From positions 372,001 through 436,000 of the forward strand of contig NZ_BSQG01000005.1 in the NCBI RefSeq assembly GCF_030268225.1: a stretch of DNA of 64,000 nt. Reading direction: 5' to 3'. The notes under the pieces were generated by a model that saw nothing but the letters and a program-made list of their open reading frames with translations, made no database searches and was not told the origin of the DNA. Every line of letters begins with the position of its first letter. Within the stretch, counting starts at the first letter, position 1. This document shows, in pieces, positions 1,207 to 18,029 of this stretch. The DNA comes from Nocardiopsis ansamitocini. Lineage in GTDB: Bacteria; Actinomycetota; Actinomycetes; Streptosporangiales; Streptosporangiaceae. A program made the translations under genes and the position numbers.

Positions 1207-4200
1207 ATGCTGGAAGGCCGGTGGACGACGGTCACCGAGTCCGAACACGAGCACGAGCGTCGCGGACTCGAAGCCATCCGCGAGCGCCTGCCGGACAAGG
1301 AGCCGTGGCGCGCCTGGTCGAACTTCACGTTCACCGCGAACAGTGGCCACGTCCGTGAGGTCGACCTGCTGGTGGTAGCGCCGGCCGGGGTGTTCCTGAT
1401 CGAGCTGAAGGACTGGCACGGATCGGTACACGGCGGCGGTAGCGACTGGGTGCAGACCACGCCCGGTGGGTTCAATCGTCGGCACGGCAATCCGCTGCAC
1501 CTGTCGAACCGCAAGGCCAAGGAACTGTCGGGCCTGATCAAAGGTGTCTCCGGTCGACCGGGAGACCACCCCAAGGTCTGGGTGGGCGAGGCGGTCTGTT
1601 TCACCGACGACACGCTCCGGGTGAACCTTTCGACCGCCGACATGAACGGCGTGTTCACGGTCAAGCGACTGGTGGAGATGCTGGCCGAGCCCCCGGGAGA
1701 CGCCCGGCACCGGATCACCGCCCAGACGTCCCGCTATGTCGATACGGCGCTGAAGAAGCTCCGTATCGCGCCGATCCGCCGCCAGTACGAGGTGGGCTCC
1801 TACTCCCTGGACGCCAAAGCGTTCGACTCCGGTCCCACCTGGGCCGACTATCTGGGCCGCCACTCCCAGCTGTCCGATCTGGCGCGGGTGCGGGTCTTTC
1901 TCAGCGAACGCGGCGCCTCCGACGACGAGCGGCGCTCGGTGGAGCAGGCCGCCGCCCGCGAGGCTTCGATACTCAGCCGGTTTCGCCATCCCGGCGCGGT
2001 GCAGCTGAAGAGCTACTTGCCGTCGGGGCATCCGGCCGGGCCGGCGATCCTCTTCGAGCACCACCCGGAGACACTGCGTCTGGACGACTACCTGGTCCGG
2101 CACGGGGACCGTCTGGACCTGAGTGCGCGCCTCGCGCTGGTGCGACAGCTCGCCGAGACGGTGCGTTCCGCTCACTCCCGGCGGGTCCACCACCGCACGT
2201 TGTCGGCGCACGCGGTGCATGTGCTTCCACGCATGCGGGAGTCGGGGGAAGAGCAGCGCTGGCTACGTCCGTGGCTGCAGATCGCGGACTGGCAGATCGC
2301 CACCGGGGAGAGCGTGAGTCGCGGTCGCCCGCTGACCCTGGCTCCGACCAGGGTGTCGGGGGCCCACATCTCGGGACAGGCCGATTCGTACTTGGCTCCG
2401 GAGTTGAGGATTCCGAGAGCCGATCCGGTGCGCCTCGATGTTTATGGACTCGGCGTGCTCACGTATCTTCTGGTGACCGGGCAGGCGCCGGGGGCGAACC
2501 AGAGCGAGGTCATGGCGCGTCTGGAGGCCGGCGAGAGTCTGCGTCCGAGCGCCCTGGTCGACGGCCTCAACCCCGACATCGACGATCTGGTGGAGGCGTC
2601 CACCGCGTACGAACCGGACCGGCGCCTATCGACGGTCGACGACTTCCTGGAGATGTTGGACTACGTCGAGCAGACGTTCGCCGAGGAAGCCCCGGGCGGC
2701 GGGGGCGCAGGCGAGGGTGGGGAGGGCGGTTCGGGAACCGGAACGGGCGGGGAACAGTCCGAGCCGGAGAAGGACCCGCTGGAGGCAGTTGCCGGGGACG
2801 TGCTGGCCAGGCGCTGGGAGGTCGTACGCCGACTCGGTACGGGCTCGACCTCACGGGCCTTCCTCGCGCGGGACCTGGAGGGCGAGCCGCGGCGGAGCGG
2901 CTCCCTGCCGGTGGCGGTGCTGAAGGTCGCGCTGAGCGAGGCCAAGCACACGGTCCTGGATCGGGAGGCAGAGGTGCTGAGCCGTATCCACCGGGACTCC
3001 AGCATCATCTCGCTGTACGAGCGGGAGCCGCTCACACTGGCCGGTCGTCGGGTCCTGGTCCTGGAATACGTGGGCGACAGCCGGGAGCCCAAGGACGGGG
3101 ACGCGGCGAAGGGACCGCGTCGTCGTGAGGACACCGTGGCCCGCCAGCTGCGGGACAACGGCCGCTTGGGCATGGACCAGTTGGAGGCGTACGGAAAGTA
3201 CCTGATCGGCGCGGTGGAACACCTGGAGGCCGAGGGGATCTGGCACCGGGACCTGAAACCGGACAACATCGCGATCCGGATCCGCCCCAACGGCACCCGA
3301 CAACTGGTGTTGATCGACTTCTCCCTCGCCGGGTATCCGGCGAAGGAGATCGAGGCGGGCACCGAGGGCTACCTCGACCCGTTCGTGGGGGTCATCACGC
3401 GCGGCTCGTACGACGGGCATGCCGAGCGCTACGCGCTGGCCGTGACGCTGCACGAGATGGCGTCCAACGAGCTGCCCCGCTGGGGCGACGGCTCGGTCAC
3501 GGCCCGGCAGACGGACGCGAAGGAATGGCCGTTCCCACAACTCGCGGCCGACGCCTTCGAACCGGCCGTCCGGGACGGCCTGATGGCGTTCTTCCGCAGG
3601 GCGCTGGCCCGGAATGTGAAGGACCGTTTCCCGGACCTGAAGCCGATGGAGCGCGCGTGGCAGCGCATCTTCCTGGACGCGCAGCAGACGACGGCACCGA
3701 GCACCGGGCACGGTGCGAAGGGCGGAGCGGTCGCCGGTGCGATGCCGGAGCCACCGATCGGGCGCCAGGACGACGACCTCTCCGCCGAGGAGGTCCTCGA
3801 CCAGCAGGCCGGGCGCGCCGATCGCACAACACCGCTGTCGGTGGCCGGTCTGACGGTCTCGGCGCAGTCCCAGCTGTTCGCGATGGGGCTGAACACAGTC
3901 GGGGACGTCCTGGAGTACTCGACGAAGAAGTTTCTCACCGCACCGGGGATGGGTTCGCGCACCCGGGAGGAGATCCAGCGCCGGCAGAAGGAGTGGAACG
4001 CACGCCTGGGCAAGGCGGCACCGGCTCCGCTCAGCGCGGAGGCCCGCAAAGCGGCCGAGCAGGAGTTCACCGACCTGGAGCGGGCGGTCGCCGACTCGGT
4101 CGCCGAAGCCGACGGGGACGTCACCGACCCGCAGGTGCTGCGCGGTCTGAGTCTGGACGCGCTGGCCGCCCGCCTGGTGCCCAAGCCCTCCGGTGGCAGT

Positions 4201-5847
4201 GCCCGTCCCAACTCCAAGGAACGGGAAACGATCCGGCTGCTGCTGCGCCTGCCCGACGACGCAGGCAAGTTGCCCGGGGATCTGGCGTGGGTCCGCCAGC
4301 GCGACGTCGCCGATGCGGTGGGGCTGACCGCCGGCCGTATCCCGCAGATCGTGAAGAAGGCGCGCGAGCGCTGGTACAAGGCCCCCGCCCTGGAGTTGCT
4401 GCGGGAACAGGTGGTGGAGCTCCTCGCCGAGCGCGGCCGGGTGGCGTCGGTGGTCGAGCTCGCCGACGCGCTGATCGCCCGGCGCGGCACCCAGCAGGTG
4501 GAGCGGCGCGACCGCCGCGCACTCGCCCTTTCGCTGCTGCGCGCGGTGGTGGAGCGGGAGAGTTACGACAACGAGTCCCCGCAGCTCTTCCGCTACTTCC
4601 ACGCTCGACTGCCCAAGGGGACTGATCCGGTACTCGGATTGATCGCCCTGGACGTCCGGGAGGACGTGGACGGCCCGGACACCCCGACGCTGCCCGCCCT
4701 ACAGGACTACGCGCTGTCCCTGGGTGTGCGGGCCGACCGGCTCGCGGGGCTCGAATCCCTGCCGACGGCGAGCACGGTCCTCACCGAGCTGGGCGCGGTG
4801 CGACGTCCGCCGGGCAACCTGGGCTGGGACGAGCGGCGCACCGCCGAGATCGCGGTGGCCGCCTCCACCCGAGCCGCGCTCACCCCGCGTCTGGAGATCT
4901 ACCCGCGCGACCTGGACCTGGTGCGTGCCCTGAGGATCACCCAGGCCGGTGTGGTCGCTGTCCAGCCGGGCATTGAGGAGGAGCGGCAACCGGGTCTGAC
5001 AGTGGACGCCCTGCACAAGCGGGTCGCCACCCGCTTCCCGGACCTGGGCACCGATCCGCTGGCGCCGCGCGAGCTGCCAACGGGCAGTGCCCTGGTCCGC
5101 GATCTGAGACAGGCCGGCTTCGAACTGAAGTTGGCCACCCGTTATGACAAAGTGCTCCGGCTCGTCGCGGACCGCCCGGCCGGGGACGCCACCGCAGGGC
5201 TGACCTCCGCGAGCTGGGGTTCCTCGGCCGCGCGCCGTTCCGCCCCCTCCCAGTACGACGCGGACGCGGCCGTGGCCGCCGCTGTCAAGGCCGAGCAGCG
5301 TCTCGCGCACTCGGCTCGACAGGACGGCTTCCGGGTTCTGACCGTTCCCCAGCGACGCACCGAGGACGCGGTGCGGCGGCTGTCCGGTGAACCGTACGGG
5401 GCTCGGGCGGTGTCGCTGACCGCGCTCTTCGTGGCCGAACTGCGCGGCGTAGTCGGCGAGGCGGCCCGCCCGACCTGGGAGACCGTTCTCAAGGCGGACG
5501 CCGCCGAGCCGGGCAGCCGGGCCCACCAGCAGCTGCGCGTCCGCACCGACAAGGCGTGGGGACGCATCGAACCGCAGCTGCGGGAACGGCTGGCACAGGG
5601 GCACGGTCCGCTGCTGTTGACCGACACCTCGGTCCTGGCCCGGTACGACGCGCTCGACCTGCTCGGGCGGCTCGCGGAGGAGGCACGGCAGGGCGGCAGC
5701 CCGCTGTGGCTGCTCGTGGCCCAGTCCGATCCGGCACGGGCCCCGCGGCTGGCCGGGCAGAGCGTGCCGTACCAGGCGGGGTTCGACGAGTGGATCGTCG
5801 TTCCCGACGCCTGGGTCGTACGCAGACACCTCGCGCCGGACGCCTGA
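1207..5847 (+). CDS. pglW: PglW, NERD and Ser/Thr kinase protein of type 2 BREX
   Basis: Large (1546 aa) kinase component of the Pgl/type 2 BREX phage-defence system. Domains in order: a NERD nuclease-like domain (about residues 10-130) with D53 and the E66-x-K68 pair intact; a first kinase fold (about 210-510) that looks dead because the catalytic HRD loop reads HRTL at 329-332; an acidic Gly-rich linker (about 495-530); a second kinase with G-loop LGTGS at 543-547, K573, and HRDLKPDN from 680, but DFS at 704-706 in place of DFG; a helix-hairpin segment like the RNA polymerase alpha C-terminal domain (about 879-925); then HTH-like segments. PglW of Streptomyces autophosphorylates. First gene of the operon, followed 56 bp later by pglX. 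Confidence 0.93.
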   Translation: MLEGRWTTVTESEHEHERRGLEAIRERLPDKEPWRAWSNFTFTANSGHVREVDLLVVAPAGVFLIELKDWHGSVHGGGSDWVQTTPGGFNRRHGNPLHLSNRKAKELSGLIKGVSGRPGDHPKVWVGEAVCFTDDTLRVNLSTADMNGVFTVKRLVEMLAEPPGDARHRITAQTSRYVDTALKKLRIAPIRRQYEVGSYSLDAKAFDSGPTWADYLGRHSQLSDLARVRVFLSERGASDDERRSVEQAAAREASILSRFRHPGAVQLKSYLPSGHPAGPAILFEHHPETLRLDDYLVRHGDRLDLSARLALVRQLAETVRSAHSRRVHHRTLSAHAVHVLPRMRESGEEQRWLRPWLQIADWQIATGESVSRGRPLTLAPTRVSGAHISGQADSYLAPELRIPRADPVRLDVYGLGVLTYLLVTGQAPGANQSEVMARLEAGESLRPSALVDGLNPDIDDLVEASTAYEPDRRLSTVDDFLEMLDYVEQTFAEEAPGGGGAGEGGEGGSGTGTGGEQSEPEKDPLEAVAGDVLARRWEVVRRLGTGSTSRAFLARDLEGEPRRSGSLPVAVLKVALSEAKHTVLDREAEVLSRIHRDSSIISLYEREPLTLAGRRVLVLEYVGDSREPKDGDAAKGPRRREDTVARQLRDNGRLGMDQLEAYGKYLIGAVEHLEAEGIWHRDLKPDNIAIRIRPNGTRQLVLIDFSLAGYPAKEIEAGTEGYLDPFVGVITRGSYDGHAERYALAVTLHEMASNELPRWGDGSVTARQTDAKEWPFPQLAADAFEPAVRDGLMAFFRRALARNVKDRFPDLKPMERAWQRIFLDAQQTTAPSTGHGAKGGAVAGAMPEPPIGRQDDDLSAEEVLDQQAGRADRTTPLSVAGLTVSAQSQLFAMGLNTVGDVLEYSTKKFLTAPGMGSRTREEIQRRQKEWNARLGKAAPAPLSAEARKAAEQEFTDLERAVADSVAEADGDVTDPQVLRGLSLDALAARLVPKPSGGSARPNSKERETIRLLLRLPDDAGKLPGDLAWVRQRDVADAVGLTAGRIPQIVKKARERWYKAPALELLREQVVELLAERGRVASVVELADALIARRGTQQVERRDRRALALSLLRAVVERESYDNESPQLFRYFHARLPKGTDPVLGLIALDVREDVDGPDTPTLPALQDYALSLGVRADRLAGLESLPTASTVLTELGAVRRPPGNLGWDERRTAEIAVAASTRAALTPRLEIYPRDLDLVRALRITQAGVVAVQPGIEEERQPGLTVDALHKRVATRFPDLGTDPLAPRELPTGSALVRDLRQAGFELKLATRYDKVLRLVADRPAGDATAGLTSASWGSSAARRSAPSQYDADAAVAAAVKAEQRLAHSARQDGFRVLTVPQRRTEDAVRRLSGEPYGARAVSLTALFVAELRGVVGEAARPTWETVLKADAAEPGSRAHQQLRVRTDKAWGRIEPQLRERLAQGHGPLLLTDTSVLARYDALDLLGRLAEEARQGGSPLWLLVAQSDPARAPRLAGQSVPYQAGFDEWIVVPDAWVVRRHLAPDA

Positions 5848-5903: not shown

Positions 5904-8900
5904 GTGATCGACCGCAAGAGCCTCCTCGCCGACTTGCAGAAGCAGGTCAAGACGGCAGAGACCGACCTTGCGCAGCAGGTCGGAGCCGTCCCCGAGGTCG
6001 GATCGCGGCTGCGCGGCGAGTACGACGAGGCCCGGAAGCTGGGCCGTACGGCAGCGACGTGGAACGCCTGGCTCGACGATCGGGTCACCCAGGTCGCGGT
6101 GGCCTGGGTGCTCGGCACGGTCTTCGTCCGCTTCAGCGAGGACAACCGGCTGATCGCCGAGCCCTACATCACCGCCCCGGACGTGGCGGGACGGGAGATC
6201 GCCCAGGCGCGGTACGAGGAGTACCTGGAGAAGGACGCCGACCCGACGTACCGGGGATGGCTGGAGACGGCGTTCGCCGAGCTGGGCGCGGGGCAGGCCG
6301 GGCGGCTGCTCTTCGACCGCGCCCACAACCCGCTGTATCAGATCCCGTTGTCGCACGACGGGGCGGGCGCGCTGCTCACGTTCTGGCGGGAGCAGCGCTC
6401 CGGCGGGGACGAGGGAGACGGTGGGGGCGGCGGCCCCGTTCTCGTGCACGACTTCAGCGATCCGCTGAGCGAGGACGGTACCGAGGGCTGGGACACCCGT
6501 TTCCTGGGCGACCTGTACCAGGACCTGAGCGAGACGGCCCGTAAGACGTACGCGCTGTTGCAGACCCCGGAGTTCGTGGAGGAGTTCATCCTCGACCGGA
6601 CGATGACCCCTGCGGTGCGGGAGTTCGGCTTCGAAGAGCTGAAGATGATCGACCCGACCTGCGGGTCCGGGCACTTCGTGCTCGGCGCGTTCGGGCGGCT
6701 GGTGCGGATGTGGGCCGAGCAACGGCCCGAGGTGGGCGCGTACGAGCGGGTGCGGGCTGCCCTCCTGTCGGTACACGGGGTGGACCTCAACCCGTTCGCG
6801 GTCGCGGTGGCCCGCTTCCGGCTCCTGGTCGCGGCGATGGCCACGAGCGGCATGCGGACCTTCGAGGAGGCGCGGCAGTACGCGTGGCCCATCCAACTGG
6901 CGGTCGGCGACTCCCTCATCCAGGACCGGCAGCTGGAGTTGCAGTTGAGGATCGGGGACGAGGAGAGGGAAGGGGGCCGTGCAGCCGGTGATCCGCTCGC
7001 CAAGTTCTCGTACGCGACGGAGGACGTGCACGAGTACCCGCAGATTTTGGCGCAGGGGCGCTACCACGTGGTGGTGGGGAATCCGCCGTACATCACGGTC
7101 AAGGACAGGAAGCTCAACGAGCTGTACCGGGGGCTGTACAAGGCATGCGCGGGAACGTACGCGCTGTCCGTCCCCTTCGCCGAACGGTTCTTCGAGCTTG
7201 CGAAGCGAGCCGAAACCGATAGCGAGGGTTACGGCATGGTCGGTCAGATCACGGCGAACTCCTTCATGAAGCGCGAGTTCGGCACGAAGCTCATCGAGGA
7301 GTACTTCGCGCACAAGGTCGAACTCACCGAGGTGATCGACACGTCGGGCGCGTACATCCCGGGACACGGGACGCCGACAGTGATCCTCGTAGGACGGCCG
7401 AGAGCGGGAGCGGAGCGGCAGGCGACGATCCGGACCGTACGAAGCGTGCAGGGAGAGCCGTCAGCACCGGAGAAAGCAGAGGAGGGATTGGTATGGCGAG
7501 CAATCGTTCAACAGATCGATGAAGCGACTACCTCCAGCCGCTGGGTTTCTGTAGACGATCTCGATCGGCACCGGTATTTTAGTAAGAAACCTTGGATTCT
7601 TACGACCGGCGGCCTTGAACTTGTACAGAATTTGTCAAACTCAAGCACGAAAAATCTCAAGTCTAAGGTCATGCGTATCGGATTCTACGGCGATACGCAC
7701 GCTGATGATGCTTTAACGCTACCAGGCCGGGCACTGAAGACGCGAAACGCAGAATCTAAATTTGTCAAGCGAATTGGCGTTGGAGATGAAGTGCGTGATT
7801 ACACACTTTCACCCGGCAACCACGCCATCCATCCTTACGATGAAAATCGTAAAATTGTCTCGCTTGACTCGATTCCAAAGATTAAAAAAATTTTATGGCC
7901 CAATCGCAGCGAACTTGGAAGCCGATCCACACCCAGCGGAAAAACTTATTTCACCGAAGGTCGGGAGTGGTGGAGCTGGCATCAACTCCCGAAAGACACA
8001 GGTTCTCATCCATGGTCGATCACTTTCGCTTTCATAGCGACTCATAATCACTTTGTTCTTGACCGGAACAAAAATTCCTTTACCCGCAGCGCTCCAATTG
8101 TCAAGCTTAACGAGACGGCAACAGAAGAGGATCATATTCGGCTTCTTGGGCTACTCAATAGCTCGACGGCCGGATTCTGGCTCAAGATGGTCAGTCACGA
8201 CAAGGGGAGCCAGGGCGTTAATGAAGGCTACAAGTCGCAGGCTTGGGAACGTTTCTACGAATTCACAGGAACTAAGCTCCAAAGGTTCCCTTTCCCTGCC
8301 GAATACCCGACCGCCCTCGCCACCGAGCTCGATTCCCTCGCCCAGCAGCTCTCCGCGACGACCCCGGCCGCCCTCGCCGCCGAGGCCGTCCCCACCTCTC
8401 CGGCTCTCCGCGACGCCCACACCCGCTACACCTCCGTCCGCGCCCGGATGATCGCCCTCCAGGAGGAACTGGACTGGCAGGTCTATTCCCTCTACGACCT
8501 GCACTCCGAGGACCTTCGCCTGCCCGACGTCTCGACCGTGCCCGAACTCGCTCTGGGCGAGCGGGCCTTCGAGATCGTGCTCGCCCGGCGGGTCGCCGCC
8601 GGAGAGGCCAGCGGCGAGTGGTTCACCCGGCACGGCTCCACGCCGATCACGGAGATCCCCGCGCACTGGCCCGACGCCTACCGCGACCTCGTCCAAAAAC
8701 GCATCGACGTCATCGAGTCGAACCGCGCCATCGGCATGGTGGAGCGCCCCGAGTACAAGCGGCGCTGGGCAACCGAGGGCTGGGACGCCATGCGACAGAA
8801 GGCGCTGAAGTCCTGGCTGCTCGACCGGGTCGAGGACCGCGCGCACTGGTTCGACGCCGACGGCGGCCCCACGGTCACCACGCTCGCCCGGCTCGCCGAC

Positions 8901-9650
8901 CGCCTGTCCGGTGACGAGGACTTCGCGGCCGTCGCCGAGCTGTACGCGCCCCGGCAGGACCTCGCGAAAACCGTACGGGAGCTGCTGTCCGAGGAGCACG
9001 TCCCGTTCGTGTCCGCGCTGCGGTACAAACCGGCCGGGCTGAAGAAGCGCGCCGACTGGGAACACGTCTGGGACCTCCAGCGCGACGAGGACGCCGCGTC
9101 CGACGAACCCGCCAAACGCAAGGTCCGCGAGCGGACGCCCGTGCCGCCGAAGTACACCTCCGCAGACTTCCTGAAACCCAGCTACTGGCGGGCGCGCGGC
9201 AAGCTCGACGTGCCCAAGGAGCGGTTCGTGTCGTACGGCACGGTCAACGCACAGACACCGGAACTGTACGGGTGGGCCGGCTGGGACCATCTGGAGCAGG
9301 CCCTCGCCCTCGCCTCCTACATCCAGCAGGCCGGGCTCGGCGACGACGACCTCGTGCCGTACCTGGCCGGTCTGCTCGAACTACAGCCGTGGTTGGAGCA
9401 GTGGTACGGCGAGTACGACCCGGATTTCTCGGCGTCGCCGGCCGCCGAGATCCTGGCGTTCAGACAGCAGAAACAGGGCGAGCTCGGGCTGACCGACGAC
9501 GCGCTGCGGGCCTGGCGCCCGGCCGCCTCCGGTGGGCGCGGCGCGAAGAAGACCGCCGCACCGAACAAGCGCGCCGGCACGAAGACCGTCGCCCCGACGT
9601 CCGCCCCGGACACCGTCACCGACGCCGCAACCGGCGCAGAGACCCGCTGA
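5904..9650 (+). CDS. pglX: PglX, BREX adenine-specific DNA methyltransferase
   Basis: Site-specific N6-adenine methyltransferase that marks host DNA in BREX. It is 1248 aa long from the GTG at 5904 (Shine-Dalgarno AGGAG just upstream). A longer open frame reaching back to 5556 would overlap pglW and is not believed. The SAM motif DPTCGSGHF starts at residue 250 and the catalytic NPPY lies at 393-396. Residues about 525-800 (bases 7480-8300) form the likely target-recognition region. There the DNA turns abruptly AT-rich and the codon use departs from the rest of the gene. The C-terminus is Ala/Lys-rich. No homopolymeric G tract longer than about 5-6 was seen, unlike the phase-variable pglX of S. 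coelicolor. Confidence 0.95.
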   Translation: MIDRKSLLADLQKQVKTAETDLAQQVGAVPEVGSRLRGEYDEARKLGRTAATWNAWLDDRVTQVAVAWVLGTVFVRFSEDNRLIAEPYITAPDVAGREIAQARYEEYLEKDADPTYRGWLETAFAELGAGQAGRLLFDRAHNPLYQIPLSHDGAGALLTFWREQRSGGDEGDGGGGGPVLVHDFSDPLSEDGTEGWDTRFLGDLYQDLSETARKTYALLQTPEFVEEFILDRTMTPAVREFGFEELKMIDPTCGSGHFVLGAFGRLVRMWAEQRPEVGAYERVRAALLSVHGVDLNPFAVAVARFRLLVAAMATSGMRTFEEARQYAWPIQLAVGDSLIQDRQLELQLRIGDEEREGGRAAGDPLAKFSYATEDVHEYPQILAQGRYHVVVGNPPYITVKDRKLNELYRGLYKACAGTYALSVPFAERFFELAKRAETDSEGYGMVGQITANSFMKREFGTKLIEEYFAHKVELTEVIDTSGAYIPGHGTPTVILVGRPRAGAERQATIRTVRSVQGEPSAPEKAEEGLVWRAIVQQIDEATTSSRWVSVDDLDRHRYFSKKPWILTTGGLELVQNLSNSSTKNLKSKVMRIGFYGDTHADDALTLPGRALKTRNAESKFVKRIGVGDEVRDYTLSPGNHAIHPYDENRKIVSLDSIPKIKKILWPNRSELGSRSTPSGKTYFTEGREWWSWHQLPKDTGSHPWSITFAFIATHNHFVLDRNKNSFTRSAPIVKLNETATEEDHIRLLGLLNSSTAGFWLKMVSHDKGSQGVNEGYKSQAWERFYEFTGTKLQRFPFPAEYPTALATELDSLAQQLSATTPAALAAEAVPTSPALRDAHTRYTSVRARMIALQEELDWQVYSLYDLHSEDLRLPDVSTVPELALGERAFEIVLARRVAAGEASGEWFTRHGSTPITEIPAHWPDAYRDLVQKRIDVIESNRAIGMVERPEYKRRWATEGWDAMRQKALKSWLLDRVEDRAHWFDADGGPTVTTLARLADRLSGDEDFAAVAELYAPRQDLAKTVRELLSEEHVPFVSALRYKPAGLKKRADWEHVWDLQRDEDAASDEPAKRKVRERTPVPPKYTSADFLKPSYWRARGKLDVPKERFVSYGTVNAQTPELYGWAGWDHLEQALALASYIQQAGLGDDDLVPYLAGLLELQPWLEQWYGEYDPDFSASPAAEILAFRQQKQGELGLTDDALRAWRPAASGGRGAKKTAAPNKRAGTKTVAPTSAPDTVTDAATGAETR
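7480..8300 (+). other. AT-rich target-recognition segment inside pglX
   Basis: Within pglX the composition shifts at about 7480 (after a codon run typical of the gene) to AT-rich DNA with codons such as aat, att, aaa, ttt and tta, and returns to GC-rich DNA near 8290. The reading frame is continuous. The encoded part sits downstream of NPPY, where PglX/BrxX proteins carry their specificity domain. This suggests a recently exchanged specificity cassette; the boundaries are by eye. Confidence 0.75.
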
Positions 9651-9673: not shown

Positions 9674-12600
9674 ATGGCGTTCATGAGCAGGAACACCCCC
9701 CGCCCCGAGGACCGGCCGTTGCTGCGGGAGTTGATCGACATCCCGGAGTCGGTGTCCACCTCCGACTTCGTGCTGAAACTGAACGAGGCGGTCACCCTTG
9801 AGGGGGCCGAGGCGGCACTGAAGGACTACGTCGTCACCGACCGGCTGCTCGGCAACTTCGACGAGGCGCTCGACCTGATCAAATCGGCGCTCGACAGCCA
9901 CTCGTCGAAGGCGGCCTATCTGCACGGCTCGTTCGGTTCCGGTAAGTCGCACTTCATGGCGGTGCTGTACGCACTGCTGTCACGGCACAAGGCCGCGCGG
10001 GCACGCGGCGACCTCGACCCGGTGCGGGCCCGGCACTCGTGGCTGGACACCGACGACCGCACGTTCCTGCTCGTGCCGTACCACATGCTGGGCTCCAAGT
10101 CCCTGGAGCAGCGCGTGCTCGGCAAGTACGTGGAGCACGTACGCAAACTGCACCCCGACTGCCCGCTGCCGCAGGTCTACCGGACCGACGGGCTCCTGGA
10201 GGACTTCGCCGAACAGCGCCGCCGCAACGGCGACGACCGGGTGATCGAGCAGCTCGCCGACGCCGGTGACGGCCAGGCCGACGAGTGGGGCGACTCCTTC
10301 GCCTGGACCACCGAACTGTTGGACCAGGCGGTGAACGCGCCCGAGGAGCACGAGAACACCAAGAACCTCGACCTGGAGTCCCCCTCCACCCCGAGAGAGC
10401 TGCGGGCCCGCCTCGTACAGGACCTCACCCAGACCCTGTTCCCGTCGTTCTCGCGCACCGCCTCCGAGGACGCCGACGGGTTCGTCTCCCTGGACAGGGG
10501 GCTCGGCGTCATCGCCGCGCACGCCAAGTCGCTCGGCTACGACGGGCTCGTCCTCTTCATGGACGAGCTGATCCTGTGGCTGGCCTCCCGCATCCACGAC
10601 CAGCGGTTCGTCTCACGCGAAGCCGACAAGATCACGAACTTCGTGGAAGGCGGCGACGAGCGGCGCGCCATCCCGGTGGTGTCGTTCATCGCCCGCCAAC
10701 GCGACCTGCGCGAACTCGTCGGCGAGGAGATGTCGGGGGCCGCCGAGGCCGCCGTGCAGGACAGCCTGAAGCTCAGCGGCGGCCGCTTCGACAAGGTCGT
10801 CCTGGAGGACCGCAACCTCCCGCAGATCGCGCAGGCCCGCCTGCTCCGGCCCGCCACCCCCGAGGCAGAGGCGAAGGTGGACGCGGCGTTCACCGAGGCC
10901 AAGAAGCTCGGCCCGGACGTGTGGGACACCCTGCTCGGCCACGACAAGTCCACCACCGGCGCGGACGAGGACGCCTTCCGGCGGACGTACCCGTTCCCCC
11001 CTGCGTTCATGGACACCCTGGTGCACATCTCCGCCGCGCTCCAGCGCTCCCGCACCGGCCTGAAGTTGATGAGCCAGCTGCTCGTCGACCACCGCGACGA
11101 CTGGCGGCTCGGGCAGCTCGTGCCGCTCGGCGATCTGTACCCGGCGATCGCGGGCGGCGGCGACAAGGCGTTCAGCGGGGAGACCAACGTCCACTTCGAG
11201 GCCGCCGACAAGCTCTACCGGGACAAGCTCCGCCCCTACCTGTTGAAGACCAACCAGGTCACCGAGGACCAGGTCGAGGCGTACCGGCGTCGCCCCGACA
11301 CCCTCGGCGACCCGCGGCTCACCGCCCGCTGCCGCGACTTCACCGGCGACAGCCGCCTGCTGCAGACGCTGCTGCTCTGTGCTCTGGCACCCAGCGTGCC
11401 CGCACTCGCCGACCTCACCCTGGCCCGGTTGCACGCCCTCAACCACGGCTCCATCACCACCCGCATCGCGGGCACCGAGGTGGGCCGCCTCGAACAGAAA
11501 GCCAAGGAGTGGGCGGCGACCTTCCCCGAGATCAAGATCACCGGCACCGGACCGGGCGCGGTGATCCGCCTGGAACTCACCGGCGTCGACCTGGACGCCG
11601 TCCTCGCCAACGCCCAGGTCCACAACAACCAGGGCAACCGGCGCGCCAAGATGCGCGGCCTGCTCAAGGACGCGCTGGGCGTCGGCGACGGACCCGGCGG
11701 CTTCGACGCCTACGACGTGCTCAACCTGGTGTGGAAGGGCACCGAACGGCAGGTCGAGGTGGTCTTCGGCAACGTCGCCGAGATCGACTCGCTGCCCGAG
11801 ACGACCCTGCGCCCCAGCCACGAAGACGCCTGGCGGCTCGTCGTCGACCTCCCCTACGACGAGGGCGAGTTCGGGCCGATGGACGACCTGCAGCGGCTGC
11901 GCGCCCTGCGGGAGAAGCCGGGCGGTGACTCGCGCACCCTGGCCTGGCTGCCCACCCACCTGACCGATGCCTCACGCGGCGACTTCGAGCGCCTCGTCGT
12001 CATCGACAAGGCCCTCGCCGACGAGGCCCGCTTCGACTCCGACTTCGCGCGCAGCCTCAACGCCGACGACAAGGCGCGGGCCAAGGGCATGCTCCAGTCA
12101 CAGCGCGCCCTTCTCACCGAGCGGATCGGCCTGGCGCTGCGGCAGGCCTACGGTCTGGCGCAAAAGCAGGAAGGCATCGTCGACCTCAGCTTCGAGGACC
12201 ACCTGTTCGCCCAGCAGAACGTCTCCGATCTGCGGCTTCCGATCGGCGCGCCCCTGGACGTCGCCGCCCGCGACCTGGCCGGAAAACTGCTCGCCCACCA
12301 ATATCCCGCCCACCCCGAGCTGGACCCCGACAATACCGGCAAACCCATCAGGCCCGCCGAGGTCAAGACCGTCTTCGAATACGTCCGCAAGGCCGCCGAG
12401 GACCGTGACGGACAGGTCGAGGTCGATGCCAAGGACCGCAGGACCATGGCACGGATCGCGGGCGGCCTCGGGCTCGGCACCATGCGGGAGGCGTACTACC
12501 GCCAGTCCACCGCGTGGCCCGACCACTTCACCCACCAGGCCCGCCGGAGCGGCACCGCCGAGCCGACACTGGTCAAGCTCTCCGACTGGAGCGACCTTCC

Positions 12601-13573
12601 CGAACCGCGCGGACTGCCCGAGCCGCTGCGCCGGCTGCTCGCCGCCGCTTACGCGGAGACGACCGACCGGGTGTGGGTGCGCGGCGGCGTCGCCGTCGAA
12701 CCCTCACCCGCTCCGCACGAGCTGAAACGCGACCATGCCCTGCGCGAGCAGCAGCTGCCCGGGGAGAGCGACTGGGCCGAGGCGCGCACGCGGTTCGAGA
12801 CCGTGTTCGGGGACCGGGCGCCGCAACTACGACGCGGGCGGATCGTCAACCAGTTCGCCGGGGATATCAGGCAGGCCGCCGCCGCGCTCTCCCAGGACGC
12901 CGGACGGCTGGTCGGGGAACTGGAGAAGCACCGCGACTTCCTCCGGTTGACCGACGACTCGCCGCGCCTCGTCCTCGCCCGGCGTGCACAAGAACTGGTC
13001 AGGGAGGTGACGGAAAGGGGCATCGAGGCCAAGGCCGTCGTGGACCGGCTCGCCCGCTTCGACCTCGGCGACTTCAGCGCACACCGGTACGGTATGTCGT
13101 TGAAGAGCGCGGGGAAGGTCGCTGCCGCGCTCCAGAACACCAGCTGGGACCAGCTGAGCCTGGCCGACACCCTTGGTGTGGACGGCGCGGCCGTCCTGGA
13201 GCGGGTGCGCGATGCCGCCACCGGCGACCCGGGTGCCTACCCCGACCTGCCCGGGGTCCTGAGAACCGGCGGCATCGAGGTGCTGTCCCTCCTGAAGGCC
13301 CGACCGACCGCGAACGAGCGCCCTCCACAGCCCGTCGCACCGCCGCAAAGCTCCGACAGCGTGGACCTGGACGGCGGCTCCGCCCACCCGCAGGTACTGC
13401 CCGAGCCGGTGGAACAGTCGTGGCAGCGCACACCGCAGCGATCCATCGTCCGCTCCGGTGGCGGGCGGACCACCGCCGCACGGGCCGTCGCCGAACTACA
13501 GGCGGAGATGGCGGCGCTCGCGGCCGAGCACCCGAACGCCACCGTCGAGATCGTCTGGAAGGTCGTCGACTGA
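9674..13573 (+). CDS. pglY: PglY, large P-loop ATPase of type 2 BREX
   Basis: 1299-aa P-loop protein, counterpart of BrxC in type 1 BREX; ATPase whose exact role in restriction is not settled. Walker A GSFGSGKSH is at residues 85-93 and Walker B LFMDEL has D297/E298. The long remainder is helical and charged with no other obvious catalytic motif. The start at ATG 9674 has a good GAGGAG site; a second ATG lies three codons later. The stop codon overlaps the pglZ start (TGATG at 13571-13575), so the two are probably translationally coupled. pglX ends 23 bp upstream. Confidence 0.93.
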   Translation: MAFMSRNTPRPEDRPLLRELIDIPESVSTSDFVLKLNEAVTLEGAEAALKDYVVTDRLLGNFDEALDLIKSALDSHSSKAAYLHGSFGSGKSHFMAVLYALLSRHKAARARGDLDPVRARHSWLDTDDRTFLLVPYHMLGSKSLEQRVLGKYVEHVRKLHPDCPLPQVYRTDGLLEDFAEQRRRNGDDRVIEQLADAGDGQADEWGDSFAWTTELLDQAVNAPEEHENTKNLDLESPSTPRELRARLVQDLTQTLFPSFSRTASEDADGFVSLDRGLGVIAAHAKSLGYDGLVLFMDELILWLASRIHDQRFVSREADKITNFVEGGDERRAIPVVSFIARQRDLRELVGEEMSGAAEAAVQDSLKLSGGRFDKVVLEDRNLPQIAQARLLRPATPEAEAKVDAAFTEAKKLGPDVWDTLLGHDKSTTGADEDAFRRTYPFPPAFMDTLVHISAALQRSRTGLKLMSQLLVDHRDDWRLGQLVPLGDLYPAIAGGGDKAFSGETNVHFEAADKLYRDKLRPYLLKTNQVTEDQVEAYRRRPDTLGDPRLTARCRDFTGDSRLLQTLLLCALAPSVPALADLTLARLHALNHGSITTRIAGTEVGRLEQKAKEWAATFPEIKITGTGPGAVIRLELTGVDLDAVLANAQVHNNQGNRRAKMRGLLKDALGVGDGPGGFDAYDVLNLVWKGTERQVEVVFGNVAEIDSLPETTLRPSHEDAWRLVVDLPYDEGEFGPMDDLQRLRALREKPGGDSRTLAWLPTHLTDASRGDFERLVVIDKALADEARFDSDFARSLNADDKARAKGMLQSQRALLTERIGLALRQAYGLAQKQEGIVDLSFEDHLFAQQNVSDLRLPIGAPLDVAARDLAGKLLAHQYPAHPELDPDNTGKPIRPAEVKTVFEYVRKAAEDRDGQVEVDAKDRRTMARIAGGLGLGTMREAYYRQSTAWPDHFTHQARRSGTAEPTLVKLSDWSDLPEPRGLPEPLRRLLAAAYAETTDRVWVRGGVAVEPSPAPHELKRDHALREQQLPGESDWAEARTRFETVFGDRAPQLRRGRIVNQFAGDIRQAAAALSQDAGRLVGELEKHRDFLRLTDDSPRLVLARRAQELVREVTERGIEAKAVVDRLARFDLGDFSAHRYGMSLKSAGKVAAALQNTSWDQLSLADTLGVDGAAVLERVRDAATGDPGAYPDLPGVLRTGGIEVLSLLKARPTANERPPQPVAPPQSSDSVDLDGGSAHPQVLPEPVEQSWQRTPQRSIVRSGGGRTTAARAVAELQAEMAALAAEHPNATVEIVWKVVD

Positions 13574-16509
13574 TGTCCGACACGGTCACCACCGGTCCCG
13601 GGGCCGTCGGCCCCGCCCGACTGTCGGCGGGAACCGTCCGCCAGTACCTCGCCGCTCGGAGTCGGCTCGGTGACGGCACGGTCCGGGTCCTGCTGCTGCG
13701 GGCCGCTCCCGTCTGGGACGGGCCCACCGTGCAGCGAACGGCGGACGGGCTGCGGGCACGGGTGGCCGTCGCGCCCTCGGTGCTCGCCGTACACGAACAG
13801 ATCCTGGACCACCTCGACGCGACGCCCCCCGCCGATCCAAAGGTTCTGGTCGTCCTCACCGATCGCGAGGACACCGACCTCGACCCCGGACTGCTCGCCC
13901 GCGTCTATGGCGCGAGAATCCGGTCCGTCGACAACTGGGAGGTCGTCCAGGAGGCATTCGGCGCAACCGGCCTCGACAGTCGGCTGCGCAACGAGAGCTG
14001 GGCAGCCGAAGCGCTGCTCGACGCGGCGGCCACCCGTGGCTGGCCCTCTCTCGGGAAGGGGCTGCTCTCCCGCGACGAGGCCCTCACCCGGTTGGCACGA
14101 CGCCGGCTCAGGATCGGTCGCCACGACACGGACGCGCTGGACGAGCGCGCCGGCCATGACGACGGGGACCGCCTCGACGCCGTCGCACTGTTTCGGTGGA
14201 CCCTCACTCTCGGCGGCCCCGACCTCCTGCGCGCCCTGCGGGGACCGGAACGGACCGGCCTGGCCCGCTTCCTCGCCGAACCCGACCAGGGCGGATCCAC
14301 CGGCACGATCGTCACCGCACTGGTGAACGCCGGGCACGGGGGGGACGCAGCGGCGTACGCGGTCGTCTGCGCCACGCTGTGGGGTCACGCGAAGGCCGAC
14401 CACGACCTGTACCGGGCACGCGGGCGTGCGGAGCGATGGCTCGGCGAACAGCCGCCCGCACAGGGCGACGAACTCGACCGCCTCCTGGCCTCCTTCGGAC
14501 GCAGCGGCGAAGCGTACGTCCTGGGCCTCGTCGACCGGAAGGAGCACCGGCTCGCCGACCCGATCCTGGCCCGGGCCGCACAGCTCGTCGCCCAGTTCGG
14601 GGCACAGGCCGCCGCCGGCGCCAGCCCGCTCCTCCCGGCCGGACTCGACGCCCGCTTCACCGTTGCGGGCCACGCTCTGGCCGATGACGACACCGCGGCC
14701 GCCACGGCCGCCGTGACCGCACTGGCCGGGCACGCCCTGGCCTCGGACGGCGCCACCCGGGCCCGTATCGAGCGGGTGCGGATGGCCGCCCGGCTGCGGC
14801 GGTGGCTCACCGACCGTCCCGTGGGCGACATCGCCTCGGTGGCCGATGGCGTCGCCCGCCAGATCCGCGAACTCGGTTGGGTGGACCGGGCCCTGGAACA
14901 TCTTGAGGCGGGAGGCGACGCGGACGACGTACTCGCCGACGCGTACAGCCGGATCGGCGCACAGGTGCGAGCCGAACGCCGCGAACTGGACCGCGCGTTC
15001 TCCGAGCGGCTCGCGGTGTGGACGGCGGACGGCACCGCACCGGGCGCCATGCTCACGGTGGAAAGCTTCCTGGACCGGGTCGTCGCACCTGTCGTGGCCG
15101 ACCCCGGTCGACGGGTACTGCTCCTCCTCGTCGACGGAATGAGCGCGGCGATCGCCGCCGAGCTCGGCGAGGAACTGCGTGGACAATGGTCGGAATTCGA
15201 CCCGGTTACCGACGCCACCGGTACACCCGTCCGGCGTGCCGTGGCCGCGGCGCTGCCCACCCTGACCACCGTATCGCGCACCTCACTGTTCGCGGGGGCA
15301 CTGCTGAAGGGCGACCAGAGCGACGAGAAGCGGCTCTTCCCCCGCCACTCCTGCTGGAAGGGTGCCCCCGCAGCCGTGTTCCACAAGGACGACCTGCGTG
15401 GCCCCGACACCGGCTCGCCCTTCTCCACCGCTCTGGGCGAGGCGCTCATCGACGGGCGCACCCACGTCGCGGTCGTCCTCAACACCGTGGACGACCGGCT
15501 CGCCAAGGAGCAGAAACTCGGCGACGGAACATGGGAGGCCAAGGAGATCGGTGCCCTGGAGCCACTGCTGCGGGCCGCCCGCGCGAACGACATGACCGTG
15601 CTCCTCACCTCCGACCACGGCCATGTGGTCGAACGGCGCGGCAGCAAGCTCGATGTGACCGGCGGCACCGTCGGTTCGGCCCGTCACCGCACCCCCGGCG
15701 GCACCGTCGGTTCGGCCCGTCACCGCACCCCCGGCGGCCCCGTCGCACCGGCCGAGGTCGAGTTGTCCGGGCCCCGGGTGGTCTGGCCCGAACCCGGCTC
15801 GCGGATCGTCGCGCTGCGGGACCACGACACCCGGTACACCGCGCTGAAGGCGGGCTACCACGGCGGAGCGACCCTCGCGGAGTTCACCATCCCCCTGCTC
15901 GCCCTGCTGCCGTTCGGCGCCCAGCCGCCCACGGGATGGCGGGAGTTGGGCGACCCCGCCCCTGTGTGGTGGGAAGAGGCCGAGGTCGCTGTCGGAGCGG
16001 AGACCGGGGCGGCCACCGACGCCGGTCCCGCACCCGATGCCGCAGTGCGCCCACGCCGCAGACACCCCAGGAAGACCGCCTCTCCCGTGTCCGAGGGAGC
16101 GATCAGTCTCTTCGACCAGGACGAGGTGGCACACGCACCGAAGCAGCACGCCGCCTCTTCGGCGGGGCCCGGGGACGTACCCGCCGCCAAGCCGACCGAA
16201 GCGTTCGCCCCCGCACTGGTGGAACGTCTCTTGGCCACCGAGCTGTACCGGGCACAGCTGGAACTGCTCGCCCGTAGGCCACAGGGCAATGCCGTCCCGA
16301 AGGCATTGGCCGCGCTCGTCGACGCGGGCACCCTGTCGATGACCGCCCTCGCCGAACGAGCCGGCCAGCCCGCGACCCGCGCCCCCGGCTTCGCCGCGAC
16401 CCTGGTCCAGCTCCTCAACTACGACGGCGCCCAGATCCTGGAGATCCTCCCCGACAACCGCACCCTGCGCCTGCACCGGGCCAGGCTCATCGAACAGTTC
16501 GGCCTGTGA
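13573..16509 (+). CDS. pglZ: PglZ, alkaline-phosphatase-fold protein of BREX
   Basis: 978-aa hallmark protein of BREX systems. The PglZ domain of the alkaline phosphatase superfamily is visible as LLLLVDGMS (517-524, nucleophile/metal region) and LLTSDHGHV (677-685), with a later GYHGG (761-765) that also fits a metal-site histidine. Between SDHGH and GYHGG sits a perfect tandem duplication of 12 residues (GGTVGSARHRTP at 697-708 and again at 709-720). The N-terminal part (1-480) is helical and typical of the family. Coupled to pglY by an ATGA-type overlap. The C-terminal 200 residues are a separate Ala-rich helical region. The operon then pauses for 118 bp before brxD. Confidence 0.94.
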   Translation: MSDTVTTGPGAVGPARLSAGTVRQYLAARSRLGDGTVRVLLLRAAPVWDGPTVQRTADGLRARVAVAPSVLAVHEQILDHLDATPPADPKVLVVLTDREDTDLDPGLLARVYGARIRSVDNWEVVQEAFGATGLDSRLRNESWAAEALLDAAATRGWPSLGKGLLSRDEALTRLARRRLRIGRHDTDALDERAGHDDGDRLDAVALFRWTLTLGGPDLLRALRGPERTGLARFLAEPDQGGSTGTIVTALVNAGHGGDAAAYAVVCATLWGHAKADHDLYRARGRAERWLGEQPPAQGDELDRLLASFGRSGEAYVLGLVDRKEHRLADPILARAAQLVAQFGAQAAAGASPLLPAGLDARFTVAGHALADDDTAAATAAVTALAGHALASDGATRARIERVRMAARLRRWLTDRPVGDIASVADGVARQIRELGWVDRALEHLEAGGDADDVLADAYSRIGAQVRAERRELDRAFSERLAVWTADGTAPGAMLTVESFLDRVVAPVVADPGRRVLLLLVDGMSAAIAAELGEELRGQWSEFDPVTDATGTPVRRAVAAALPTLTTVSRTSLFAGALLKGDQSDEKRLFPRHSCWKGAPAAVFHKDDLRGPDTGSPFSTALGEALIDGRTHVAVVLNTVDDRLAKEQKLGDGTWEAKEIGALEPLLRAARANDMTVLLTSDHGHVVERRGSKLDVTGGTVGSARHRTPGGTVGSARHRTPGGPVAPAEVELSGPRVVWPEPGSRIVALRDHDTRYTALKAGYHGGATLAEFTIPLLALLPFGAQPPTGWRELGDPAPVWWEEAEVAVGAETGAATDAGPAPDAAVRPRRRHPRKTASPVSEGAISLFDQDEVAHAPKQHAASSAGPGDVPAAKPTEAFAPALVERLLATELYRAQLELLARRPQGNAVPKALAALVDAGTLSMTALAERAGQPATRAPGFAATLVQLLNYDGAQILEILPDNRTLRLHRARLIEQFGL
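15661..15744 (+). repeat. 36-bp in-frame tandem repeat in pglZ
   Basis: Two identical 36-bp units (15661-15696 and 15697-15732) followed by a 12-bp partial third copy with one mismatch (15733-15744). Each unit encodes GGTVGSARHRTP. The unit length is a multiple of three, so loss or gain of a copy keeps the frame but changes a loop next to the phosphatase motif SDHGH. Confidence 0.97.
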
Positions 16510-16627: not shown

Positions 16628-17977
16628 GTGAACGTATTCGGATCTTCGGTCTCCGGGGCAGCCGCCCCCGTCGGCGCAGTGCGACGGCGCGCCGTGGTGG
16701 ACGCGCTGCGGCGTGGCGCCGTCCCCGAGAGCGGCCTCGACCTGCTCGCCACCGGACTCGGCCGGTTCGAGCGGGCAGTCGACGAGGACCTCGACACCGT
16801 GGCCGCCGGCGGCTCCGTGTTCAAGGCCGTGCGCGGCGAGTACGGCTCCGGCAAGACCTTCTTCACCCGCTGGCTCGGAGAACGCGCCAAACGACGCACC
16901 TTCGCCGTGGCCGAAGTGCAGGTGTCGGAGACCGAGACGCCACTGCACAAGTTGGAGACCGTCTACCGGCGACTCACCGAACGCCTGACAACCGCGAGCT
17001 TCCCGCCCAGCGCCCTGCGCCCGATCGCCGACGCCTGGTTCTACGCCCTGGAGGAGGACGCCCTCTCCGACGGCGCCGGTGAGGATGAGCTGTCGCCGGC
17101 CGTGGACCGGCTGCTCACCGCCCGCCTGGCCGAGGTGTCCCGGCACGCACCGGCCTTCGCCACCGCACTGCGCGGATACAAGCAGTCCCTGGACGCAGGC
17201 GACGAGGCCACCGCGGCCGCGGTGATGTCCTGGCTCGGCGGCCAGCCACACGTCGCCGCAGCCGCTCGGCGCAGCGCGGGCGTTCGCGGCGACCTCGATC
17301 ATTTCGGTGCGTTCGGATTCCTTCAGGGCCTGCTCACCATGCTCCGAGACGCCGGGCACGCAGGACTGGTCCTCGTCCTGGACGAGGTGGAAACCTTGCA
17401 GCGGGTGCGCTCCGATGCCCGGGACAAGGCACTCAACGCGCTTCGACAGCTCATCGACGAGGTCCACTCCGGCCGGTTTCCCGGCCTGTACCTCGTCATC
17501 ACCGGCACCCCCGCCTTCTACGACGGGCAGCAGGGCGTCCAGCGTCTCGCGCCGCTCGCCCAGCGCCTCGCCACCGACTTCACCACCGATCCGCGCTTCG
17601 ACAACCCGCGTGCCGTACAGATCCGCCTGCCCGGCTTCACCGAGGAATCTCTCACCGTCCTGGGCGCCACCATCCGTGACCTGTACGCCGAAGGCTCACC
17701 GTCCTTCGACCGGATCAACCAACTCGCCGACGACGCCTACCTCACCGACCTGGCCCTGGCCGTTGGCGGTGCGCTCGGCGGAAAGGTCGGGGTGGCACCC
17801 CGGCTGTACCTCAAAAAGCTGGTCGGCGACGTACTCGACCGGATCGACCAGTTTCCCGACTTCGACCCGCGCACCCACTACAAACTGACGGTGGGCAGCG
17901 GCGATCTCACCGCCACCGAACGGAACTTCGCCGCCCCCGCACCGGCTTCGGCTGACGACCTCGACCTCGACCTTTGA
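16628..17977 (+). CDS. brxD: BrxD, ATP-binding protein of type 2 BREX
   Basis: 449-aa AAA/STAND-like ATPase from the GTG at 16628. Walker A GEYGSGKT is at residues 70-77 and Walker B LVLVLDEVE has D252/E253. VITGTPAFY and the Arg-rich LAPLAQRLATDF that follow look like sensor regions. BrxD is one of two genes added to pglWXYZ to define type 2 BREX. The 118-bp gap after pglZ contains no other gene but may hold a secondary promoter. The C-terminus ends in an acidic tail (DDLDLDL). brxHI follows 52 bp later. Confidence 0.9.
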   Translation: MNVFGSSVSGAAAPVGAVRRRAVVDALRRGAVPESGLDLLATGLGRFERAVDEDLDTVAAGGSVFKAVRGEYGSGKTFFTRWLGERAKRRTFAVAEVQVSETETPLHKLETVYRRLTERLTTASFPPSALRPIADAWFYALEEDALSDGAGEDELSPAVDRLLTARLAEVSRHAPAFATALRGYKQSLDAGDEATAAAVMSWLGGQPHVAAAARRSAGVRGDLDHFGAFGFLQGLLTMLRDAGHAGLVLVLDEVETLQRVRSDARDKALNALRQLIDEVHSGRFPGLYLVITGTPAFYDGQQGVQRLAPLAQRLATDFTTDPRFDNPRAVQIRLPGFTEESLTVLGATIRDLYAEGSPSFDRINQLADDAYLTDLALAVGGALGGKVGVAPRLYLKKLVGDVLDRIDQFPDFDPRTHYKLTVGSGDLTATERNFAAPAPASADDLDLDL

Positions 17978-18029
17978 CCATCTGTTGCCGGAGCCCACAA
18001 CTCTGACGACCAGCACAGGAGTCACAGAC

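What the first reader, a model, noticed from the sequence alone, without database searches (positions are those of the whole stretch)
7480..8300. Specificity region of PglX looks recently exchanged
About 800 bp in the middle of pglX is markedly AT-rich while both flanks are typical high-GC. The switch is abrupt at both sides, the frame is kept, and the encoded residues (about 525-800) sit where BREX methyltransferases recognise DNA. This is what cassette swapping of a target-recognition domain would look like and implies a rapidly changing methylation motif.
Basis: partly seen in the sequence, partly recalled or inferred. Interest (0 to 1): 0.68.

Follow-up and report, generated by a model that had tools for sequence, protein, structure and literature searches.

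The report
Swappable DNA-recognition core of PglX
The AT-rich middle of this anti-phage methyltransferase gene is the part that reads DNA; it has been swapped between otherwise separate lineages of the gene, apparently as two independent pieces, but nearly every relative has the same AT-rich patch, so the patch alone does not show a recent swap.

Summary
Codons 512-800 of pglX (window 7437-8303) have GC3 0.50 against 0.91 and 0.92 in the flanks, far beyond chance. The gene belongs to a BREX type 2 (Pgl) locus, and the tract is the target-recognition domain (TRD).

The interpretation needs correcting. Exchange itself is strongly supported by other evidence. The two flanks share one history (identity correlation 0.95), while the main TRD module is random with respect to the flank tree (58 changes; shuffled 58.3). 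Synonymous identity decays gradually on both sides of the TRD, pointing to homologous recombination with scattered crossovers rather than a fixed cassette.

New here: the TRD contains two independently assorting pieces, T1 (about residues 571-735) and a small loop module, T2 (about 758-792), with discrete ancient alleles. By analogy with the methyltransferase CamA, T1 should read the outer bases and T2 the bases beside the methylated adenine. Recency, donor and motif remain undetermined.

The parts
5904..7436 (+). pglX left flank, residues 1-511: N-terminal helical region and N6-adenine methyltransferase core (start codon tentative)
   Evidence: GC3 0.91; identity co-varies with the right flank, r = 0.95; Eco57I/MmeI methylase Pfam matches
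6651..6671 (+). methyltransferase motif I, DPTCGSG (SAM binding), residues 250-256
   Evidence: read from the translation; columns D, P, C, G, S, G invariant in 58 homologues
7080..7091 (+). methyltransferase motif IV, NPPY (adenine methylation), residues 393-396
   Evidence: read from the translation; invariant in 58 homologues
7437..8303 (+). low-GC3 tract, residues 512-800: target-recognition domain with its edges
   Evidence: GC3 change points, gain 110 against a shuffled maximum of 11; synonymous breakpoints against sister L017 at residues 509-796
7614..8108 (+). module T1, residues 571-735: main part of the target-recognition domain
   Evidence: assorts at random on the flank tree (58 changes, shuffled mean 58.3); nearest relatives L007/L010/L011 differ from the nearest flank relatives; aligns with the CamA TRD
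8154..8180 (+). conserved anchor LNSSTAGFW (residues 751-759) between T1 and T2, a possible crossover site
   Evidence: invariant N, S, S, W columns; 86% pairwise identity in residues 751-760 among close-flank pairs
8175..8279 (+). module T2, residues 758-792: loop module with discrete alleles (here SHDKGSQGVNEGYKSQAWERFYEFTGTK)
   Evidence: identity correlation with T1 -0.04 and with flanks 0.07; model pLDDT below 50 at residues 770-776; CamA base contacts S514, I517, Y521 fall here by extrapolation
8304..9650 (+). pglX right flank, residues 801-1248 and stop: spacer helices and DUF7008
   Evidence: GC3 0.92; DUF7008, 534 bits; long helices in the model
1207..5847 (+). pglW, protein kinase with NERD nuclease-like domain
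   Evidence: PADLOC PglW 1418 bits; Pkinase and NERD
9728..13573 (+). pglY, BREX-2 ATPase
   Evidence: NCBIfam PglY 1876 bits, cut-off 1700
13570..16509 (+). pglZ, BREX-2 phosphatase (start tentative)
   Evidence: NCBIfam PglZ_2 845 bits, cut-off 200
16628..17977 (+). brxD, ATPase
   Evidence: PADLOC BrxD 664 bits
17985..20177 (+). brxHI, helicase
   Evidence: PADLOC BrxHI 1058 bits

Best explanation
The AT-rich tract is the target-recognition domain of a BREX type 2 PglX adenine methyltransferase. It has been replaced relative to the gene's nearest flank relatives by homologous recombination between pglX genes, with crossovers in the conserved catalytic domain on the left and in the spacer region on the right. 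This happens throughout the family, so TRD and flanks have unrelated histories. Inside the TRD two modules assort separately: T1 (residues about 571-735) and a loop module T2 (about 758-792). Inferred: T1 reads the outer bases of a roughly 6-bp motif and T2 reads the base or bases next to the flipped adenine, so exchange of either resets part of the methylation and exclusion motif. Shown: composition, mosaicism, decay of linkage; supported by prediction: fold. Not shown: motif, donor, date, and the cause of the low GC3, which is a standing property of exchangeable recognition domains in high-GC hosts.
For: Flank-flank identity correlation 0.95, flank-TRD 0.41 and 0.40; closest-flank homologues L005, L017 and L004 have only 38-41% core identity, while the closest core (L007, 67%) has flanks of 78% and 71%. 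T1 clusters on the flank tree need 58 changes against 58.3 shuffled; control N-flank clusters on the C-flank tree need 11 against 43.7. AU tests reject joining the window with its T1 relatives on the flank tree (p 2e-34) and with its flank relatives on the T1 tree (p 2e-76). Composition-corrected synonymous identity among close-flank pairs falls from about 0.4-0.5 at the ends to 0.03 in T1, on both sides. Synonymous breakpoints against L017 (509-796) coincide with the GC3 steps (512-800). T2 is independent of T1 and flanks. Fold and profile matches to DNA-bound CamA, M.BseCI, PglX/BrxX and MmeI.
Against: No donor found: the best core match anywhere is 67-68% identical. Low GC3 is family-wide and cannot by itself date or prove exchange. 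T2 alleles have near-saturated synonymous sites, so sharing of T2 is ancient, not recent, and common descent plus constraint could explain part of it. Groups for the AU tests and module borders were chosen after seeing the data. T2 shows weak residual association with the flank tree (59 changes against 71 shuffled).
Confidence: 0.82

Rival explanations
1. Recent import of one AT-rich cassette (residues 525-800 as a unit) from a low-GC donor; the low GC is the donor's signature.
For: Sharp GC3 steps that coincide with synonymous breakpoints against L017. The dip is the sixth largest of 112 and the tract is narrower than most.
Against: 110 of 112 homologues and proteobacterial PglX carry the same dip. 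No low-GC donor found; core relatives all lie in pglX frames of the same class. Residues 751-800 match flank-clade genes L012 and L014 at 94-96%, while 545-728 match another group, so the tract is not one unit.
Confidence: 0.2
2. No exchange: the TRD diverged in place by fast, positively selected point mutation, and the low GC3 follows from relaxed codon usage.
For: TRDs are expected to evolve fast; T1 identity is low nearly everywhere.
Against: Synonymous sites are close to saturation also in the conserved catalytic residues 481-570 among relatives with conserved distal flanks. GC3 is as low at columns conserved above 90% as at variable ones. T1 clusters recur across the flank tree at the random rate.
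Confidence: 0.06
3. Programmed switching by a recombinase or inverted repeats with silent TRD cassettes, as in some phase-variable specificity genes.
For: pglX phase variation is known in S. coelicolor, but through a G tract (PMC4365076).
Against: The core has no second copy in the window's genome at E up to 10. No long exact repeat or strong inverted repeat flanks the tract. The family's diversity profile is a gradient, not a step.
Confidence: 0.03
4. AT-rich codons in the TRD are selected for their own sake (translation, mRNA structure or avoiding self-recognition), independent of exchange.
For: The dip recurs across phyla and also in TRDs of type I specificity subunits beside high-GC3 neighbours.
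Against: L056 has an intact TRD of the same family with GC3 0.95. The dip extends as a gradient into conserved catalytic codons and tracks loss of linkage, rho 0.91.
Confidence: 0.08

Closest known systems
BREX type 2 / Pgl PglX (NF033451), e.g. the Pgl system of Streptomyces coelicolor
   Same: Same gene family and gene set: pglW, pglX, pglY, pglZ, brxD, brxHI
   Different: The published accounts read here describe phase variation by a G tract (PMC4365076) and divergent TRDs (PMC12839542); TRD exchange or two sub-modules were not described in the papers found
BREX type 1 BrxX/PglX of E. coli and Salmonella (structures 9EWZ, 8C45)
   Same: MTase-TRD-spacer architecture; TRD is the most variable part; a residue near the TRD end (N823 / S838) sets the base before the methylated adenine (PMC11842806, PMC11341690)
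   Different: Only the motif I region of the methyltransferase domain aligns by sequence profile; NCBIfam BREX-1 score 49.5, far below the cut-off of 500
CamA, orphan adenine methyltransferase of Clostridioides difficile (7LNI, 7RFM)
   Same: Best fold match (target TM 0.81) and best profile match including the TRD (E 1e-15)
   Different: Much shorter (577 aa): lacks the BREX N-terminal region and C-terminal half; its TRD is fixed and reads CAAAAA (PMC8187626)
MmeI, Type IIL restriction-modification enzyme (5HR4)
   Same: Shared MTase and TRD fold (E 5e-12); specificity known to be changeable residue by residue (PMC4833311, cited in PMC11341690)
   Different: Carries a nuclease; fold match weaker than CamA
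TRD exchange and domain movement in Type I S genes of Helicobacter pylori
   Same: TRDs form homology groups exchanged by allelic homologous recombination between conserved flanks (PMC3983042)
   Different: There two whole TRDs in one S subunit each read a half-site; here one TRD appears split into a large module and a loop module in a single-chain MTase

Membership tests
BREX type 2 PglX | NCBIfam BREX-2 PglX model above curated cut-off | tested here: met
   NF033451, 1746.9 bits, cut-off 400, residues 7-1208
BREX type 2 PglX | Operon with PglW, PglY, PglZ, BrxD and BrxHI | tested here: met
   All five in order on the same strand
BREX type 2 PglX | Amino-methyltransferase motifs I and IV (NPPY) | tested here: met
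   DPTCGSG and NPPY present and (but for one residue of motif I) invariant
BREX type 2 PglX | Site-specific N6-adenine methylation and phage exclusion | not testable with these tools
   Needs methylome and phage assays
Gamma-class MTase TRD (CamA/MmeI/BrxX kind) | Core tract folds as a TRD attached to the MTase domain | tested here: met
   Model pLDDT 84.9; CamA TM 0.81, M.BseCI 0.72, PglX and MmeI also match; residues 549-758 align with CamA 308-511
TRD exchange by homologous recombination | Conserved flanks with a core of discordant ancestry | tested here: met
   Identity correlations, AU tests and label shuffles
TRD exchange by homologous recombination | Diversity at silent sites decays with distance from the exchanged segment | tested here: met
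   Symmetric decay after correction for composition
TRD exchange by homologous recombination | Enzymes sharing a TRD share a motif; enzymes differing in TRD differ in motif | not testable with these tools
   No methylome data or REBASE access
TRD exchange, recent in this genome | Near-identical donor, or close strain with another TRD | tested here: inconclusive
   No congener held; best core relative 67-68%
Invertible or silent-cassette specificity locus | Silent TRD copies, or inverted repeats at the borders | tested here: not met
   No second core copy in the genome; no long repeats at the borders

The most novel reading that the evidence does not exclude
BREX type 2 PglX is a two-slot combinatorial DNA reader. 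A large TRD module (T1) and a 20-35-residue loop module (T2) are drawn independently from two ancient allele pools; T2 sets the base or bases beside the methylated adenine and T1 sets the rest. The exchanged DNA keeps its own AT-rich composition against the host's high GC, with a gradient of lost linkage around it, which would make it a natural test of what keeps bacterial genomes GC-rich.
Probability: 0.4. Interest if true: 0.72.

Novelty: new variant of a known kind. Interest (0 to 1): 0.5.

Why it matters
If T1 and T2 are independent readers, the motif of a type 2 BREX system could be predicted from two short allele tables, and its specificity studied by module grafting instead of residue guessing, which so far gave relaxed motifs in type 1 BrxX (PMC11842806). 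It would also explain how phages meet new BREX motifs without new BREX operons. The tight link between lost silent-site linkage and low GC3 (rho 0.91) is a natural experiment on GC content. Under biased gene conversion (PMC4450053) recombining DNA should be GC-richer, yet the conserved flanks nearest the exchanged segment are GC-poorer.

Tried and rejected
Single-sequence search of the PDB found no hit; only the profile of 58 homologues reached CamA, M.BseCI and BrxX. The search for a donor TRD in 395 genomes of the class found only TRDs inside pglX frames or their fragments, at most 54% identical. A second TRD copy in the genome was not found. Inverted or direct repeats bordering the tract: only chance-level short repeats. 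Amino-acid composition as cause of the low GC: rejected, GC3 falls for every amino acid. Fast evolution of variable codons as the cause: rejected, columns conserved above 90% are equally low. One uniform AT-rich donor pool: not clearly supported, because core GC3 weakly follows host GC (slope 0.98, p 0.04). T2 sharing as evidence of recent exchange: rejected, silent sites are near saturation. The G tract known from S. coelicolor: here only GGGGG, too short to claim phase variation. The first family-wide genome search failed for technical reasons and was repeated.

Full report
What the gene is. The window holds a complete BREX type 2 (Pgl) operon on the + strand: pglW 1207-5847, pglX 5904-9650, pglY 9728-13573, pglZ about 13570-16509, brxD 16628-17977, brxHI 17985-20177. 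PglX passes the NCBIfam BREX-2 PglX model at 1747 bits (cut-off 400). A PADLOC type IIG model also matches strongly (1070 bits), but the gene set settles the assignment. The host is a high-GC actinomycete; a genome of the same family group carries the pglX of Actinocorallia sp. API 0066. No congener is held. Residues below are counted from window 5904.

The observation. GC in 400-base windows drops to 0.477 at 7601-8200. GC3 is 0.91 up to codon 511, 0.50 for codons 512-800 and 0.92 after. The change points lie at window 7437 and 8303, with a log-likelihood gain of 110 against at most 11 in shuffles. No other BREX gene in the window has such a trough, and no 800-base window from 20000 to 64000 falls below 0.63 GC.

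I collected 117 full-length or nearly full-length PglX sequences (window included), 112 after removal of duplicates. Of these 112, 110 have a GC3 dip above 0.1 over residues 540-795, median dip 0.27; the window's dip ranks sixth. PglX from Azospirillum, Polaromonas and Thiodictyon plasmids show a clear dip at 511-800 and Sphaerotilus a weaker one. Type I specificity subunits in genomes of the window's family behave alike: median TRD GC3 0.69, neighbouring frame 0.86, TRD lower in 21 of 29 cases. Neighbouring frames were taken mechanically and not all are hsdM, so this comparison is rough. AT-richness is thus a standing property of exchangeable recognition domains in high-GC hosts, not a timestamp.

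Exchange is nevertheless real, on evidence independent of composition. (a) Identity of N- and C-terminal flanks correlates at 0.95 over all pairs, but only 0.41 and 0.40 with the core; extreme pairs have flanks of 94% and 92% with a 39% core (L113/L049). (b) For the window, the nearest flanks are L017, L002, L004 and L005 (85-90%) with cores of 38-50%; the nearest cores are L007, L010 and L011 (63-67%) with flanks of 70-78%. The segment in which core relatives beat flank relatives is residues 545-728, score 50 against a shuffled maximum of 9. (c) Trees disagree: forcing the window with its core relatives on the flank alignment costs 655 lnL (p 2e-34), and forcing it with its flank relatives on the T1 alignment costs 280 lnL (p 2e-76). 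The groups were picked after seeing the data, so the p-values are nominal. The eight-row flank group itself is also rejected as a clade on the flank tree (p 0.00015), because other near relatives belong with it. (d) T1 clusters on the flank tree need 58 changes, against a shuffled mean of 58.3; N-flank clusters on the C-flank tree need 11 against 43.7.

How it is exchanged. Among pairs with flank identity above 84%, silent-site identity corrected for composition falls smoothly from 0.58 at the N-terminus through 0.23 at residues 361-390 and 0.06 at 481-510 to 0.03 in T1, and rises again to 0.49 at the C-terminus. Residues 461-500 are still 84% identical in protein in such pairs, so this is not protein divergence. 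The natural reading is recombination tracts of varying length with crossovers scattered through the catalytic domain and the spacer. Individual GC3 tracts also vary in length (5-95% range: start 276-552, end 706-975). A fixed cassette border or an invertible element would give a step, and no border repeats or second copy were found. In this particular gene the silent-site breakpoints against L017 (residues 509-796) coincide with the GC3 steps (512-800), which fits one pair of junctions. Other flank relatives give silent-site breakpoints scattered between residues 410 and 886, as expected if they too have exchanged.

Two modules. In 30-residue bins, residues 571-720 correlate with each other (0.52-0.60) but less with the flanks (0.09-0.34). 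Residues 751-780 correlate with neither (-0.09 and 0.00), although flank bins of the same size correlate at about 0.5-0.9 with the rest of the flanks. Over residues 758-792 the sequences fall into discrete loop alleles with characteristic insertions, e.g. NKGSTVDSKGARQSTIPFEDFYEFTGTK, YPKGGDPVGDEGARVSVHPWSDRYEFTGTK, DKGNRGGERGTGRYAWESFYEFTGTK, shared by proteins with flanks as little as 44% identical. T1-T2 correlation is -0.04; of 99 pairs with similar T1, 92 have different T2. The window's T2 is that of L003, L012, L014 and L023, its T1 that of L007, L010 and L011. Silent sites in shared T2 alleles are near saturation (0.50, against 0.64 in the N flank), so these alleles are old and kept by selection; their reshuffling is deep rather than recent. 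T2 keeps a weak association with the flank tree (59 changes, shuffled 71) and almost none with the T1 tree (66, shuffled 71).

Structure and likely mechanism. A model of residues 200-1206 (pLDDT 84.9) matches DNA-bound CamA best (target TM 0.81), then M.BseCI, PglX/BrxX, TaqI and MmeI. The profile aligns residues 549-758 with CamA 308-511 (profile positions converted to residues by counting, so borders are good to a few residues). In CamA, base contacts Q346, I349, R425, Q438, W439, Y455 and S472/A473 lie in the T1-equivalent part. S514, I517 and Y521, which touch the pair next to the flipped adenine and A4, lie 3-10 residues past the alignment end, which extrapolates to the T2 loop at about residues 768-775 (PMC8187626). 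That loop is the low-confidence segment of the model (residues 770-776). In type 1 BREX a residue near the TRD end (N823 / S838) sets the base before the methylated adenine (PMC11842806, PMC11341690). I infer that T1 reads the outer bases and T2 the inner ones. This is inference by homology and was not tested.

Why AT-rich. GC3 is equally low at columns conserved above 90% (0.57-0.59 over 511-740) and falls with loss of silent-site linkage (rho 0.91 across 30-residue bins). One intact homologue, L056, has TRD GC3 0.95, so function does not require AT-rich codons. Core GC3 follows host GC weakly. Import from lower-GC sources, incomplete amelioration of frequently moved DNA, and weaker action of whatever raises GC in such DNA remain open. 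Simple biased gene conversion (PMC4450053) would predict higher GC where recombination is frequent, the opposite of what is seen.

Novelty. TRD exchange by homologous recombination is known for Type I and other systems (PMC3983042) and TRD divergence is noted for BREX (PMC11842806, PMC12839542). In the papers searched I found no account of TRD exchange in BREX type 2 PglX, of two independently assorting TRD pieces, or of the family-wide composition trough; the library lacks most subscription journals. I rate it a new variant of a known kind.

Limits. One genome per species, so no strain-level dating; module borders, cluster cut-offs and test groups were chosen from the data; recognition motifs are unknown.

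Noticed in passing
L056:2708-6328 (Streptomyces sp. ODS25): The one PglX homologue whose TRD has host-like GC3 (0.95) throughout, showing that AT-rich codons are not needed for an intact frame.
   Followed up: partly
window 6420-6435: Glycine-rich stretch of pglX (about residues 172-177) with a five-G run. In S. coelicolor a G tract in pglX causes phase variation; here the run is probably too short, and whether it is the same site was not checked.
   Followed up: partly
L060:1-1870 and L068:1-1785: A second, about 41% identical PglX lies at the upstream end of these Streptomyces loci. Several genomes in the family search carry two or three full-length pglX genes, possible partners for exchange within one genome.
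   Followed up: no
window 40-840: McrBC-type 5-methylcytosine restriction component (161 bits) directly upstream of pglW, beside an adenine-methylating BREX system.
   Followed up: no
L142:6001-10160 (Thiodictyon plasmid pTs417): pglX is split into two annotated genes near residues 829-838, just right of the TRD, with a small extra gene between them.
   Followed up: no
window 15659-15730: Perfect tandem duplication of 36 bases inside pglZ (two copies, a multiple of three).
   Followed up: no
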